64,000 nucleotides of DNA from Falsiroseomonas frigidaquae. Its GTDB lineage: Bacteria; Pseudomonadota; Alphaproteobacteria; Acetobacterales; Acetobacteraceae. The stretch is from positions 372,001-436,000 of the forward strand of contig NZ_JAAVTX010000004.1 in assembly GCF_012163145.1 (NCBI RefSeq). The letters run 5' to 3'. Shown one piece after another: positions 28,593 through 34,147 of the stretch (position 1 is the stretch's first letter; every line of letters begins with the position of its first letter). The position numbers and the translations under genes are program-made. The notes beneath the pieces were generated by a model, which was not told where the DNA came from, made no database searches, and saw only the letters and a list, made by a program, of their open reading frames with translations.

Positions 28593-28670
28593 CGGGGTTC
28601 TCCTGCAACCGCCCGGTAGATGGTCCATCCGGCGCCGCTTCGCCATACTGGCGGGATGAGGGAGACCGAG

Positions 28671-29966
28671 ATGGCCTGGACCGATGCCGCGGCCCGCGCG
28701 GCGCTGAAGGATGTCTTTGCCGCGGCGGTGGCCAGCGCCGATCCGCGAATCGTCCTGGCCCGCCACCTGCCGGACCCGCCTGCTGGCGGCCGCGTGGTGG
28801 TGGTGGGCGCCGGGAAATCGGCCGCGGTGATGGCCGCGGCGGTGGAGGCGGCCTGGCCCGACCAGGCGCTCACCGGCCTCGTCGTCACCCGCTATGGCCA
28901 CGGCCATCCGACAAGCCGGATCGAGGTGCTGGAAGCCTCCCACCCCGTGCCGGATGCCGCCGGCGCGGCGGCAGCGGAGCGGTTGCTGCAGGCGGTGGGC
29001 GGGCTGACGGAAGCGGACCTCGTGCTGTTCCTGGTCTCCGGCGGCGGATCGGCGCTGACCACCCTGCCGGCGCCGGGGCTGACGCTGGACGACCTGATGG
29101 CGGTGAACCGCGCGCTGCTCGCCTCCGGCGCCACGATCAACGAGATGAACTGCATCCGCCGGCACCTTTCCGCTTTTTCCGGCGGCCGGCTGGCGCTGGC
29201 GGCCGCGCCGGCGCGGGTGGTGACGCTGGCGATCTCCGACGTGCCGGGGGATGACCCGGCCGCCATCGCCTCCGGCCCCACCGTCCCGGACCCGAGCAGC
29301 TTCGAACAGGCCCGCGCCCTGGTGGCGCATTACCGGATGGACCTGCCCGCGGCGGTGGTCGCGCATCTGGCCCAGGCTGCGGAGGAAACGCCGAAGCCCG
29401 GCGACCCGCGGCTGGGCGAGGTGGACTACCGCTTCATCGCCACCCCCCGCCTGGCGCTGGAAGCCGCCGCCGCCAAGGCCCGCGCGCTGGGCCTCACGCC
29501 CCTGATCCTGGGCGATGCGCTGGAAGGCGAGGCGCGGGAGGTCGGCAAGGTGCTGGCCGGCATCGCGCTGTCCGCCCGCGCCCATGGCCACCCCCTGCCC
29601 GGCCCGTGCCTGCTGCTGTCCGGCGGGGAGACCACGGTGACCATCGGCCCGGAAGTCGGCGGCCCGGATCGGGGCCGGGGCGGGCGCAACGGCGAATCGC
29701 TGCTGGGCTGCGCCGTGGCGCTGGCCGGCGCGCCGGGGATCTGGGCGCTGATGGGCGATACGGACGGCATCGACGGGTCGGAGGACAATGCCGGCGCCAT
29801 CTGCGCGCCGGACACCCTGGCCCGCGCCCGTGCCGCCGGGCTGGACCCGCGCGCGGTGCTGGGGCGGCATGACAGCTACAGCCTGTTCCAGGCGCTGGAC
29901 GACCTGCTGGTGACCGGGCCGACGCTGACCAATGTGAACGATCTGCGGGCCGTGCTGGTGGCGTAA
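28671..29966 (+). CDS. Glycerate kinase type-2 family (glycerate 2-kinase, MOFRL)
   Basis: A 431-residue enzyme of the DUF4147/MOFRL family that phosphorylates D-glycerate, usually to 2-phosphoglycerate. Seen: VVVGAGKSAAVMA, the LVSGGGSALTTLPAPG loop, INEMNCIRRHLSAFSGGRL and the C-terminal LLSGGETTVTI followed by GDTDGIDGSEDNAGA. ATG 28671 is chosen because a GAGGGAG box lies 6 bases upstream; ATG 28656 is also in frame. Glycerate links to the glycolate/glyoxylate metabolism encoded at 36.6-43.8 kb, although the genes are not adjacent. Confidence 0.9.
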   Translation: MAWTDAAARAALKDVFAAAVASADPRIVLARHLPDPPAGGRVVVVGAGKSAAVMAAAVEAAWPDQALTGLVVTRYGHGHPTSRIEVLEASHPVPDAAGAAAAERLLQAVGGLTEADLVLFLVSGGGSALTTLPAPGLTLDDLMAVNRALLASGATINEMNCIRRHLSAFSGGRLALAAAPARVVTLAISDVPGDDPAAIASGPTVPDPSSFEQARALVAHYRMDLPAAVVAHLAQAAEETPKPGDPRLGEVDYRFIATPRLALEAAAAKARALGLTPLILGDALEGEAREVGKVLAGIALSARAHGHPLPGPCLLLSGGETTVTIGPEVGGPDRGRGGRNGESLLGCAVALAGAPGIWALMGDTDGIDGSEDNAGAICAPDTLARARAAGLDPRAVLGRHDSYSLFQALDDLLVTGPTLTNVNDLRAVLVA

Positions 29967-29999: not shown

Positions 30000-30871
30000 C
30001 TAGGCCAATGGCAAGCCGTCCTCGTCCATTCGTCTGGACACGCGCACCATCAGGCCTTTAACAACCTCCATTATATGAAGTGCCTCTTCCGATGTGTAAT
30101 TCTGATCAAAGTGCATGGTTGCATTGCGATAAGGGTTCTGCATTGCGGCCAATGCTCCGTATATTTCTTCGAAGAATTTTCCGTCGCCAGTCATACGAGT
30201 CGTGCTGGAGGGCCACCGGTCAGCAATAGCTGCGTTCACAGCCCGCAGGGCGCTCCCCCAGTTCCGTTCGCTCCCCTTGGTCGGATCTGGCACCCTCAGA
30301 CACCTGGAGATGGCGCGGAGACCCACCTCCAAACACCTTATCGAGTGGAAGGCACTTGCCGTGGAGCGCTCCAAAGCGAAGCACTTTCCAGCCTCTGATA
30401 TTTCACCACCGAGTGACGGAAATTTTTGCTGCACAAGTACGCCAAAAAGCGGCACGGGCTGGTCAAAATAGGCCGCTTAGAGGCTGAAAGCGCCAGGAAC
30501 AGCTTGGCGCGCATCTCGTTCCCGACAATGTTTGCGACAGACGAGAGGGCGCCTTCCAGATCATCTCTGTTCTGTCCAAACAACAACAATCTGCCGGAGT
30601 TAACTACAGCGCCATCAAGACATGTCAAGATTTTACGCATTGCTCGAACAGAAACGTGCAGGTCTAATGCATCCAAAACAAGCAAATAACTCTCGGCCTT
30701 TCGTCGGATCATTGCGGCTTGCTCAGCGGCAAGCATGATCTTGTCGTCTTTTCCAAAACAGCTACCCATGGCAGCAAAAAAACTCTGTAAATCTACTAGA
30801 TTGCCAATATCAATTTTTTCCATCAGCTTTGTAAGCTCCTCGGCTGGCTCGGTGCGAAGGCCGATCGACAC
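30000..30871 (-). pseudogene. HEPN-like domain gene broken by a one-base frameshift
   Basis: Two overlapping minus-strand frames (30338-30871 and 30000-30455) read as one protein if a single A is restored near 30477: SASK then AAYFDQPVPLFG. The repaired product is about 290 residues from GTG 30871, or about 274 from ATG 30823. The C-terminal part has FHSIRCLEVGLRAISRCL, a Trp-containing loop, and YRNATMHFD, an R-x4-H motif of the HEPN class. HEPN domains are RNases or adaptors in defence and toxin systems; this protein's role is not established. The gene is clearly AT-richer than all neighbours and isolated, which suggests transfer. The frameshift may be real or a sequencing error. Confidence 0.6.
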
Positions 30872-31119: not shown

Positions 31120-32250
31120 TCAGCGCAGGACGATTTCCACGCGGCGGTTCTGCGGCTCGCGCACACCGTCGGCGGTCGGGACCAGCGGGCGGCTCTCGCC
31201 GAAGGCCTGGACGCTGATGTTGCTGCGCTGGATGCCACGGCGCTCCAGCTCGGAGGCCACGGCGCCGGCGCGGCGCTCGGACAGGCGCTGGTTGTACTGC
31301 GGCGTGCCGGAACGGTCGGCGTGGCCGGAGACCTCGATGCGCGTCACGCCCTGGCTGGTGGAGTTCTGGGCCGCCTCGCCGATGATCTGGCGGGCGCGGT
31401 CCGTCAGGTCGGCGCGGTCGAAGTCGAAGAACACCAGGTAGGTACGGGCCGGCGCCGGGGCGGCGGCGGGCATCGGCGCGGGGGCCGGGGCGACGACCGG
31501 GGCCGGGGTGGTCTGGCCGAAGGCGTAGCGCAGGCCGATCAGGATCGAGTGGTTGTAGTTCTCGGACTTGGTGCCGGTGCGCGCCACGGTGAAGGCACCG
31601 CCGCCGCTGTTGGTGTCGATGTCATGCTCCAGCGTGCCGAGGAAGCGGTACTCGGCGGTCAGCGCCAGGCCCGGGGCCCACTGGGTCAGCGGCATCGCGG
31701 CGCCGACGATCGCCTGGTAGGCGAAGCGGCCATCCGTACCGTCGCTGCGCACCGCGCCGCCCAGCACGTTCGCGCGCACATCGTCGAACTCGCGCCAGAT
31801 GTAGCCGGCGCCGACGCCGACATACGGCAGGAAGGACACGCCGCCGAAATTGGCGCCGATGTCGAAGTCATACAGGGCGTTCGCCATCACGCCGTAGCTG
31901 CGGGCGGTGCCCGAAGCGCGGACCGGCCCGGCGCCGCGGAAGCCGCTGATGGTGTCGACCTCGTTCTCGCGGTAGCTGCCCTCGATCTCGGCGCGGAGGC
32001 CGTTGCCGAAGCCATAGCCCAGGCTGACGACGCCGACCCAGCCCATGTCGAAGGACACGTCGCCGCCGGTGGTGTTGCCGCGCGCACGCAGCGTATCGGC
32101 CAGCGTGCCGGTCGCGTTGATGTTCGCGTCCTGCAGCCAGTTCACGCCCGCGCCGGCACCGATGTAGATGCCGTTGACCTGCTGGGCCTGGGCGGCGCCG
32201 AGCGGCAGCAGCAGCATGGTGGTCGCGAGCAGCGCATTCCGGAAATTCAT
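31120..32250 (-). CDS. OmpA-family outer membrane protein
   Basis: A 376-residue protein with a signal peptide cleaved near AQA-QQ at residue 23. An 8-strand type outer-membrane barrel follows (GIYIGAGAGVNW, aromatic-ended strands), then a Pro/Ala linker and an OmpA C-terminal peptidoglycan-binding domain: VFFDFDRADLT, VSGHADRSG, YNQRLSERRA and NRRVEIVLR. ATG 32250 is chosen because a GGAGAA box lies 8 bases upstream. It anchors the outer membrane to the cell wall. It is divergent from the HTH-pyruvate kinase gene and ends at a strong terminator. Confidence 0.93.
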   Translation of the reverse strand: MNFRNALLATTMLLLPLGAAQAQQVNGIYIGAGAGVNWLQDANINATGTLADTLRARGNTTGGDVSFDMGWVGVVSLGYGFGNGLRAEIEGSYRENEVDTISGFRGAGPVRASGTARSYGVMANALYDFDIGANFGGVSFLPYVGVGAGYIWREFDDVRANVLGGAVRSDGTDGRFAYQAIVGAAMPLTQWAPGLALTAEYRFLGTLEHDIDTNSGGGAFTVARTGTKSENYNHSILIGLRYAFGQTTPAPVVAPAPAPMPAAAPAPARTYLVFFDFDRADLTDRARQIIGEAAQNSTSQGVTRIEVSGHADRSGTPQYNQRLSERRAGAVASELERRGIQRSNISVQAFGESRPLVPTADGVREPQNRRVEIVLR

Positions 32251-32424
32251 AACCAATTCTCCTGGCTGGACGAGCCATTCCGCGCCGGGGGTGGAGGGTC
32301 CGGCAGCAGCGTCCTGCGCGGTTCAACGCGAGTTCCCTGGAAAAGGTGGCACAGCGAAAAAATTCACGGGGACAGTGTGGCAAGAATAGCGCAGTGGGGC
32401 GAACGGAGCGCTGCGGCGTCAAAA

Positions 32425-32445
32425 TTGCTTAATAAAATTAAGCAA
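32425..32445. promoter_or_regulatory. Perfect inverted repeat, candidate operator upstream of HTH-pyruvate kinase
   Basis: TTGCTTAAT at 32425-32433 and ATTAAGCAA at 32437-32445 are a perfect 9-bp inverted repeat around a 3-base AAA centre. It stands in a locally AT-rich spot 46 bases before the start of the HTH-pyruvate kinase gene and about 175 bases upstream of the divergent ompA-family gene. Size and symmetry fit a dimeric Cro-like regulator. A TATTGT at 32471-32476 could be a -10 element. Which protein binds is unknown. Confidence 0.6.
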
Positions 32446-32491
32446 CATTCCCCATCTGGTACTCCGGGCTTATTGTGCCTAACTTAGCCGC

Positions 32492-34147
32492 ATGCGCGAC
32501 CCCACCCTCGAAGCCCTGCTGACCCAGCGCGGCGCCGTCACCCGTATCGCCACCGCCCTCGGCATCTCCACCGCCGCCGTGTCCCAGTGGCGCCGCGTGC
32601 CGGATGACCGGGTGGCCGAAGTCGCCCGCGCGCTCGGCGTGCCGCCCACCGCGGTGCGGCCGGACGTCACCGAACCGCCGGAAGCGCCCCGCCGCGAAGG
32701 ATCAGCCCGCCCCATGCCCAGCCGTCCCCCGCTGCGCCGCCGCCGCCGCACCAAGATCATCGCGACCCTCGGCCCGGCCTCCTCCTCCGCCGAGGTGATC
32801 GAGCGGCTGTTCCGCGCCGGCGCGGACGTGTTCCGGCTGAACTTCAGCCACGGCACGCATGAGGACCACGCCGCGCGGATCGCGACGATCCGGGCGCTGG
32901 AGGAGAAGGTCGGCCGCCCGATCGGCATCCTGGCGGACGTCCAGGGCCCGAAACTCCGCGTCGGCAAGTTCCAGGCCGGCCGGGTGCAGTTGCAGACCGG
33001 CCAGAACTTCCGGCTCGACCTGTCGCCGACGCCGGGCGATGTCCGCCGCGTGCAGTTGCCGCACCCCGAGATCATCGCCGCCGCCGGCATCGGCACCACG
33101 CTGCTGCTGGATGACGGCAAGCTGCGCCTGCGAGTGACCCATAAGCGGGAGGATCACCTGGAAACCCAGGTGGTGGTCGGCGGCCCGCTTTCGGACCGCA
33201 AGGGCGTCAACGTGCCCGATGTGGTGCTGCCGATTCCGGCGCTGACCGAAAAGGACCGTGCCGACCTCGACTTCGTTCTTGAACAGGGCGTGGAATATAT
33301 CGGCCTGTCCTTCGTGCAGCGGGCGGAGGATGTGGTGGAGGCCAAAGCCATCGCCGCCGGCCGCGCCTGGATCATGGTGAAGATGGAGAAGCCCCAGGCG
33401 GTCGAGAACCTCGACGCGATCCTGGCGGAGGCCGATTGCGTCATGGTGGCGCGCGGCGACCTCGGCGTGGAATGCCCGCCGGAGGAAGTGCCGCTGATCC
33501 AGAAGCAGATCGTCCGCGCCGCCCGCCTGCTCGGCAAGCCGGTGGTGGTCGCGACGCAGATGCTGGAAAGCATGATCACGGCCCCCTCCCCCACCCGGGC
33601 CGAGGCGCAGGACGTGGCGACGGCGGTGTTCGACGGCGCCGACTGCGTAATGCTCTCGGCCGAGACCGCCGCCGGGCAATTCCCGTTCGAGGCGGTGAAC
33701 ATCATGGACCGCATCATCGCGCGGGTGGAGGAAGATCCGGATTGGCGCCGGCTGACCGATGCCAACCGCCCGGCGCCGGAACGCAACTCCGCCAGCGCCA
33801 TCGCCGCCGCCGCCCGCCAGGTGGCGCAGACGATCGATGCCGAGGCGATCGCCACTTTCACCTCCACCGGCTCCACCATGCTGCGGGTGGCGCGCGAGCG
33901 GCCGAGCTGCCCGATCATCGGCCTGACGGCGAGCCTGCAGACGGCGCGCCGCATGGCGGTGGTGTGGGGCGTGCACCCGATGATGTCGGTGGAGCTGCAT
34001 TCGATGACGGACATGGTCGCGAAGGCGATCCGGGCCGCCAGCCAGGAAGGCTTCGCCAAGTCGGGCGACGAGGTGGTGGTCACCGCCGGGGTGCCCTTCG
34101 GCACGCCGGGCACCACCAATGCGCTACGCGTCGCCATCGTGAAATAG
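32492..34147 (+). CDS. pyk: Pyruvate kinase with N-terminal Cro/YdaS-like helix-turn-helix
   Basis: One 551-residue open frame. Residues 1-58 form a Cro/YdaS-like HTH: AVTRIATALGISTAAVSQWR at 15-34, then PDDRVAEVARALGV and AVRPDV. A Pro/Arg linker leads to a full pyruvate kinase from residue 79: RTKIIATLGPAS, FRLNFSHG, KMEKPQAVENLD, VARGDLGVE, and ATQMLESMI. The kinase makes ATP and pyruvate from phosphoenolpyruvate. A second ATG at 32714 (residue 75) could give the kinase alone, but its AAGGA lies 12 bases away, which is wide. No stop separates the parts, so the HTH is fused if ATG 32492 is used. A palindrome sits upstream. Confidence 0.9.
   Translation: MRDPTLEALLTQRGAVTRIATALGISTAAVSQWRRVPDDRVAEVARALGVPPTAVRPDVTEPPEAPRREGSARPMPSRPPLRRRRRTKIIATLGPASSSAEVIERLFRAGADVFRLNFSHGTHEDHAARIATIRALEEKVGRPIGILADVQGPKLRVGKFQAGRVQLQTGQNFRLDLSPTPGDVRRVQLPHPEIIAAAGIGTTLLLDDGKLRLRVTHKREDHLETQVVVGGPLSDRKGVNVPDVVLPIPALTEKDRADLDFVLEQGVEYIGLSFVQRAEDVVEAKAIAAGRAWIMVKMEKPQAVENLDAILAEADCVMVARGDLGVECPPEEVPLIQKQIVRAARLLGKPVVVATQMLESMITAPSPTRAEAQDVATAVFDGADCVMLSAETAAGQFPFEAVNIMDRIIARVEEDPDWRRLTDANRPAPERNSASAIAAAARQVAQTIDAEAIATFTSTGSTMLRVARERPSCPIIGLTASLQTARRMAVVWGVHPMMSVELHSMTDMVAKAIRAASQEGFAKSGDEVVVTAGVPFGTPGTTNALRVAIVK

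What the first reader, a model, noticed from the sequence alone, without database searches (positions are those of the whole stretch)
32492..34147. Pyruvate kinase fused to a Cro/YdaS-like helix-turn-helix
The frame from 32492 to 34147 has no stop. Residues 1-58 read as a small DNA-binding repressor-type HTH; residues 79-551 are a complete pyruvate kinase. A DNA-binding domain on a glycolytic enzyme would let the enzyme act as, or be tied to, a transcription switch. The alternative is that the kinase starts at ATG 32714, though even then an HTH peptide cannot end before the kinase because no stop separates them.
Basis: partly seen in the sequence, partly recalled or inferred. Interest (0 to 1): 0.75.

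Follow-up and report, generated by a model that had tools for sequence, protein, structure and literature searches.

The report
Pyruvate kinase carrying a Cro DNA-binding domain
In many Roseomonas-like bacteria the glycolytic enzyme pyruvate kinase is encoded with a virus-type DNA-binding head, and matching DNA sites sit at the gene's own start, so the enzyme probably controls its own production.

Summary
Residues 1-58 form a P22-type Cro domain (above Pfam's cut-off; YdaS is below its own), joined by a disordered linker to a full pyruvate kinase. The in-frame fusion recurs in at least 26 of 193 family genomes with a PK match and in 80 of 80 loci found with the HTH profile. The HTH is under purifying selection.

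CTTA-N7-TAAG (up to one mismatch) starts 23-24 bases before the HTH start codon in 76 of 80 loci, with a distal copy in 63. No unfused pyk locus of 24 has one. Of 66 exact copies in 26 fused genomes, 30 lie at this promoter. The proximal site overlaps a probable -10 box of a leaderless transcript.

Best reading: a single-target trigger enzyme that represses its own gene. DNA binding, repression and metabolite control are inferred, not shown. The domain resembles an unannotated Cro-like frame of a Komagataeibacter phage. My searches listed no report of such a PK.

The parts
32425..32445 (.). Distal operator: perfect palindrome TTGCTTAATAAAATTAAGCAA, holding CTTA-N7-TAAG at 32428-32442
   Evidence: distal site within one mismatch in 63 of 80 loci
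32469..32483 (.). Proximal operator CTTATTGTGCCTAAC (one mismatch to CTTA-N7-TAAG), starting 23 bases before the ATG
   Evidence: proximal site within one mismatch in 76 of 80 loci
32480..32485 (+). Probable -10 box TAACTT ending 6 bases before the ATG, overlapping the proximal operator; would give a leaderless transcript (inferred)
   Evidence: conserved columns -12 to -7; the consensus promoter scan found none here
32492..32665 (+). P22-type Cro helix-turn-helix domain, residues 1-58
32666..32734 (+). Variable linker, residues 59-81; 61-77 predicted disordered
32714..32716 (+). Internal ATG (M75), probable relic of the unfused pyk start codon
32735..34147 (+). Pyruvate kinase, residues 82-551, and stop codon

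Best explanation
A single-target trigger enzyme. One polypeptide carries a phage-type P22 Cro domain, a flexible linker and an intact pyruvate kinase. The Cro domains, paired within the PK oligomer, bind CTTA-N7-TAAG at the gene's own promoter. The proximal site covers the spacer and part of the -10 box of a leaderless promoter, so binding should block RNA polymerase and hold the PK level steady. The distal site, most often about four helical turns away, should strengthen binding, perhaps by one tetramer holding both. Shown here: the fusion, its conservation, selection on the HTH, the conserved operators, their tie to the fusion, and the lack of other clear targets. Inferred: DNA binding, repression, the leaderless start, tetramer bridging, and any effect of PK ligands on binding.
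For: Fusion without stops in at least 26 family genomes of 13 genera and 80 of 80 profile-selected loci. Purifying selection on the HTH and 20 invariant HTH residues in 39 sequences. Operators: proximal within one mismatch in 76 of 80, distal in 63 of 80; at least one within one mismatch in 25 of 26; 0 of 24 unfused pyk loci. Exact motif: 66 places in 26 fused genomes, 30 at this promoter; 27 places in 26 unfused genomes, 0 at pyk. Single PK match in 19 of 26 fused genomes. No ATG, GTG or TTG from codon 41 to the kinase in L016. A Cro-like phage frame also has a palindrome just before its ATG.
Against: No binding or expression data exist here. The consensus scan found no sigma-70 promoter in 32250-32800 and one terminator-like stem at 32455-32468, near chance. 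Spacing between operators is not constant: 41-42 bp in 47 of 70 pairs, 47 bp in 10, 37-40 bp in 13. 17 of 80 loci lack a distal site within one mismatch, and L021 has no site within one mismatch. Relatives that have lost the domain or never had it are found within the same PK clade, so it is dispensable. The internal ATG has slightly better Shine-Dalgarno matches (4-5 bases in 15 of 16) than the HTH ATG (mostly 3), so an HTH-less product is possible.
Confidence: 0.77

Rival explanations
1. The fused protein also controls other genes: the HTH makes PK a regulator of a carbon-metabolism regulon.
For: 36 exact motif places in the 26 fused genomes lie away from pyk; weaker sites were not surveyed genome-wide.
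Against: The density of those places (about 0.25 per Mb) is like that in unfused genomes (27 places, about 0.23 per Mb). The two-site arrangement with up to 3 mismatches was at pyk in 8 of the 9 genomes with a match; the ninth match is elsewhere.
Confidence: 0.1
2. Two products: a full HTH-PK made at low level as the regulator, and the bulk enzyme made from the internal ATG at 32714.
For: The internal ATG is kept in 16 of 26 fused genes, with Shine-Dalgarno matches of 4-5 bases in 15 of 16.
Against: 10 of 26 fused genes lack that ATG; six have no ATG, GTG or TTG in the 14 codons before the kinase core, and L016 has none from codon 41 on. None of the 16 has a match of 6 or more, against 6 of 20 unfused starts.
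Confidence: 0.25
3. The HTH acts positively or as a spacer or tether: it activates the promoter or places PK on DNA without repressing.
For: The distal site lies upstream of the presumed promoter, a place used by activators (general knowledge).
Against: The most constant site is the proximal one, which overlaps the presumed -10 box, a repressor position (general knowledge).
Confidence: 0.08
4. The HTH is a leftover: a phage cro gene landed upstream, lost its stop, and the extension has no function.
For: A related frame exists in a Komagataeibacter phage, and unfused genes are interspersed with fused ones in the PK tree.
Against: Purifying selection on the HTH, 20 invariant HTH residues in 39 sequences, and operators that occur with the fusion and not without it.
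Confidence: 0.03

Closest known systems
PutA of Escherichia coli (trigger enzyme)
   Same: An enzyme with its own DNA-binding domain that binds only at its own promoter region (PMC8249747, passages read)
   Different: PutA is a proline dehydrogenase with another type of DNA-binding domain (domain type recalled); here the enzyme is pyruvate kinase and regulation is not yet tested
P22-type Cro repressors (3bd1, 1rzs)
   Same: The HTH profile matches them (8e-7 and 2.4e-6); P22_Cro above Pfam's cut-off; palindromic sites at the own promoter
   Different: Cro is a small stand-alone protein; here it heads a 551-residue enzyme
Komagataeibacter phage phiKM1 unannotated frame (L156:4001-4246)
   Same: 47.5% identity over residues 1-59, RPD tail, palindrome just before its ATG
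   Different: Ends after 81 residues, not fused to an enzyme; half-site CTAA rather than CTTA
Pseudomonas aeruginosa PykF (7oo1)
   Same: Best solved match to the kinase part, 5.7e-160; a tetramer regulated by sugar phosphates and related metabolites (PMC8637920, passages read)
   Different: No HTH matched: only the kinase part (477 residues from M75) was searched, and the match covers chain residues 5-469 of 477
BzdR
   Same: XRE-type HTH joined by a linker to a kinase-like domain (PMC3602430, abstract and passages read)
   Different: The shikimate-kinase-like domain of BzdR had no detectable kinase activity; here the kinase keeps its conserved residues

Membership tests
Pyruvate kinase | Barrel and C-terminal domains over the family cut-offs | tested here: met
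   PF00224 376.8 bits, PF02887 125.5 bits; TIGR01064 513.9 bits, cut-off 306.4
Pyruvate kinase | Active-site residues conserved | tested here: met
   R115, N117, S119, D149, K297, E299, D323 and T355 are invariant in 39 sequences; their roles are recalled
Pyruvate kinase | Enzyme activity | not testable with these tools
   Needs an assay; the only PK match in this genome
P22-type Cro | Score above Pfam's cut-off | tested here: met
   33 bits in the whole protein, 40.1 bits for residues 1-74; cut-off 30.2
YdaS | Score above Pfam's cut-off | tested here: not met
   20.8 and 25.6 bits; cut-off 30
Trigger enzymes | Enzyme and DNA-binding domain in one polypeptide | tested here: met
   Sequence level: one conserved frame; no alternative start codon in L016
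Trigger enzymes | Target sites in DNA | tested here: inconclusive
   Conserved palindromic sites that go with the fusion; binding not tested
Trigger enzymes | Control of expression, dependent on substrate or effector | not testable with these tools
   Needs binding and reporter assays

The most novel reading that the evidence does not exclude
The PK tetramer itself is the sensor: its four Cro domains form two pairs that bridge two operators about four helical turns apart, and the shape change of PK on binding sugar phosphates or substrate shifts their fit. Glycolytic state would then directly set transcription of what is often the only pyruvate kinase gene, with no separate regulator.
Probability: 0.33. 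Interest if true: 0.87.

Novelty: new variant of a known kind. Interest (0 to 1): 0.76.

Why it matters
Enzymes that regulate their own gene are known, but my searches of an open-access library listed no central glycolytic kinase that does so through a captured phage-type repressor. If true, one protein joins flux sensing, catalysis and gene control at the last step of glycolysis in many species, with an allosteric enzyme and a defined pair of operators that can be tested directly. Fused and unfused genes interspersed in one clade give ready comparisons, and related HTH domains on other proteins hint that such captures recur.

Tried and rejected
Chance open frame: rejected by conservation of frame, start and operators. 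Stand-alone HTH gene before pyk: none of the 80 profile-selected loci has a stop between HTH and kinase; those loci were picked by patterns made from fused HTHs, so the sample leans towards fusions. tblastn of the HTH on 24 unfused loci gave only weak matches, best E 0.77 (its second part stopped with an error and was redone). Regulon: not supported. Fused PKs as one clade: rejected (26 rows against 23, p-AU 0.000565; one unfused row, L031, was dropped as too short by my anchor), so losses or transfers must be assumed; I did not separate the two. Fusion outside the family: the HTH profile matched 9 of 385 class genomes, the window's own included; none of the other 8 frames is a PK. PKs with an unrelated DNA-binding domain were not searched. 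The second exact site in this genome (C1:111190) lies in a region with short frames, one XRE-like by eye, and was not followed. Tetramer geometry was not computed. The family scan's list of matches was cut at weaker ones, so 26 is a lower bound. Literature listings were capped.

Full report
What is there. The frame 32492-34147 codes for 551 residues without a stop. Residues 1-74 alone match P22_Cro above its cut-off and YdaS_toxin below its cut-off; residues 85-547 cover the two pyruvate kinase domains. A profile of 19 fused HTHs matches the solved Cro proteins 3bd1 (profile positions 10-59) and 1rzs (9-39). The predicted structure has a helical domain at 1-58, a disordered linker (61-77 under pLDDT 50) and a folded kinase; mean pLDDT 83.6, pTM 0.78. 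The genome has one PK match. Two same-genus loci have contig lengths equal to those of Falsiroseomonas selenitidurans and F. bella records, so I infer that the window is from Falsiroseomonas.

It is one conserved protein. Of 200 family genomes, 193 had a PK match; at least 26, in 13 genera and including the window's own, matched from residue 1 to 550 or 551 with no stop (the list was cut at weaker matches). HTH and kinase are conserved while the linker varies by whole codons. In a collection with names, patterns made from the fused HTHs matched 146 stretches, 96 encoded a relative, and the best 80 were kept; their titles include Falsiroseomonas, Neoroseomonas, Plastoroseomonas, Belnapia, Siccirubricoccus, Pararoseomonas and Roseococcus. 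In 80 of 80 the HTH frame runs into the kinase; 3 of these run off the contig inside it. Median pN/pS over pairs of the 26 is 0.459 for the HTH (325 pairs), 0.82 for the linker (323 pairs) and 0.299 for the kinase (325 pairs); distant pairs have near-saturated synonymous sites. For L001/L002 of the window's genus dN and dS are 0.046 and 0.633 in the HTH and 0.046 and 0.371 in the kinase. HTH and PK distances correlate (r 0.646, 0 of 2000 permutations as high), as expected if the two travel together.

The internal start. The ATG at 32714 lies where most of the unfused relatives examined start pyk. It is kept in 16 of 26 fused genes. None of the 16 has a Shine-Dalgarno match of 6 or more bases, against 6 of the 20 unfused loci (of 24) that have an ATG at the place scanned; but 15 of the 16 have 4-5 bases, more than most HTH start codons. 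Six fused genes (L010, L015, L016, L017, L019, L025) have no ATG, GTG or TTG in the 14 codons before the kinase core, and L016 has none from codon 41 on. In 19 of 26 fused genomes there is a single PK match (counted), so there the fused gene should supply the activity unless a divergent PK was missed.

The operators. A second copy with one mismatch, CTTATTGTGCCTAAC, lies at 32469-32483. Among the 80 loci the proximal site is within one mismatch in 76 (exact in 69), at -23 or -24 in each; the distal site is within one mismatch in 63 (exact in 45); both are present in 59. Of 70 site pairs, 29 are 41 bp apart, 18 are 42, 10 are 47 and 13 are 37-40. In the 26-genome set, which overlaps the 80, 25 have a site within one mismatch and L021 has only a two-mismatch site. 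In 70 of 80 loci the nearest upstream in-frame stop is at -12, the TAA of TAAG (counted). None of 24 unfused loci has a site within one mismatch in the 330 bases before the kinase core.

Genome-wide, the exact motif is rare: 2 places in the window's genome. In 26 fused genomes there are 66 places, 30 of them directly upstream of HTH-pyk, in 22 of the 26 genomes (counted). In 26 unfused genomes there are 27 places, none at pyk (counted). The other 36 places in fused genomes are about 0.25 per Mb, against about 0.23 per Mb in unfused ones, so no wider regulon shows. The two-site arrangement with 41-bp spacing and up to 3 mismatches matched in 9 of 26 genomes, at pyk in 8 and elsewhere in one; the reversed control pattern matched more often, so up to 3 mismatches is a loose test.

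Promoter. Around the proximal site, columns -12 to -9 and -7 favour TAAGNT, and C is found at -1 in 71 of 80. With weak Shine-Dalgarno matches at the HTH ATG this fits a -10 box that starts transcription at the ATG. Leaderless mRNAs are common in Caulobacter: 375, or 9.6% of CDSs (PMC4117421, passages read). Against this, the consensus scan found no sigma-70 promoter in 32250-32800. The 5' half CTTA lies between the presumed -35 and -10 boxes, so the promoter alone does not explain its conservation.

Origin. The best of 7 phage matches is an unannotated frame of Komagataeibacter phage phiKM1, 47.5% identical over residues 1-59, beside a divergent XRE regulator, as expected of a cro gene. A 19-bp palindrome, AACTAAACATGGTTTAGTT, lies just before its ATG. 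Its half-site CTAA-N7-TTAG resembles CTTA-N7-TAAG. In several unfused loci the glycerate kinase gene ends shortly before pyk (by eye). I infer that a phage cro entered this gap and joined pyk in frame. The PK tree (49 rows) needs 6 label changes, at least 3 by well supported branches, and rejects fused PKs as one clade, so the domain was later lost or the gene moved several times.

How it likely works. PutA, a trigger enzyme, binds only at its own promoter region and represses it when proline is absent (PMC8249747, passages read). By analogy the fusion should repress its own transcription by covering the promoter. PykF of P. aeruginosa is a tetramer regulated by sugar phosphates and related metabolites (PMC8637920, passages read), so four HTHs could form two pairs for two operators about four turns apart. 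That step and any metabolite effect are inference; the 47-bp and 37-40-bp spacings argue against a strict need for helical phase.

Known or new. Trigger enzymes and HTH regulators with a kinase-like domain are known. My five searches of the open-access library listed no paper that describes a pyruvate kinase with a DNA-binding domain (titles and starts of abstracts seen; three listings were capped); papers outside that library were not seen. I file it as a new variant of trigger enzymes by architecture and sites, with regulation untested.

Noticed in passing
L158-L162 and L165 (class genomes): Frames of 271-328 codons with a related Cro/YdaS HTH followed by a TorD-like part; L158 scored Nitrate_red_del and YdaS_toxin above cut-off, the others look alike by eye.
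   Followed up: partly
L164, minus strand: A related HTH in frame with an NAD(P)H-hydrate epimerase/dehydratase (YjeF_N and Carb_kinase), with TAAG/CTTA half-sites before its ATG. One genome only; could be a chance read-through.
   Followed up: partly
L156:4001-4246 (phage phiKM1): Unannotated Cro-like frame of 81 residues beside a divergent XRE regulator.
   Followed up: yes
31120-32256, minus strand: OmpA-family gene (Pfam OmpA and OMP_b-brl) divergent from HTH-pyk; it shares the intergenic region with the operators and might be affected.
   Followed up: no
28620-29966: MOFRL/DUF4147 glycerate kinase gene, about 2.5 kb before HTH-pyk here, while in several unfused relatives it ends just before pyk.
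   Followed up: no
30000-30871, minus strand: Two overlapping frames in different registers without Pfam matches; possibly one gene broken by a frameshift.
   Followed up: no
52 family genomes: CTTA-N7-TAAG is rarer than the pattern read backwards in each of the fused and unfused genomes listed, for example 2 against 25 in the window's genome, so the rarity is not due to the fusion.
   Followed up: no
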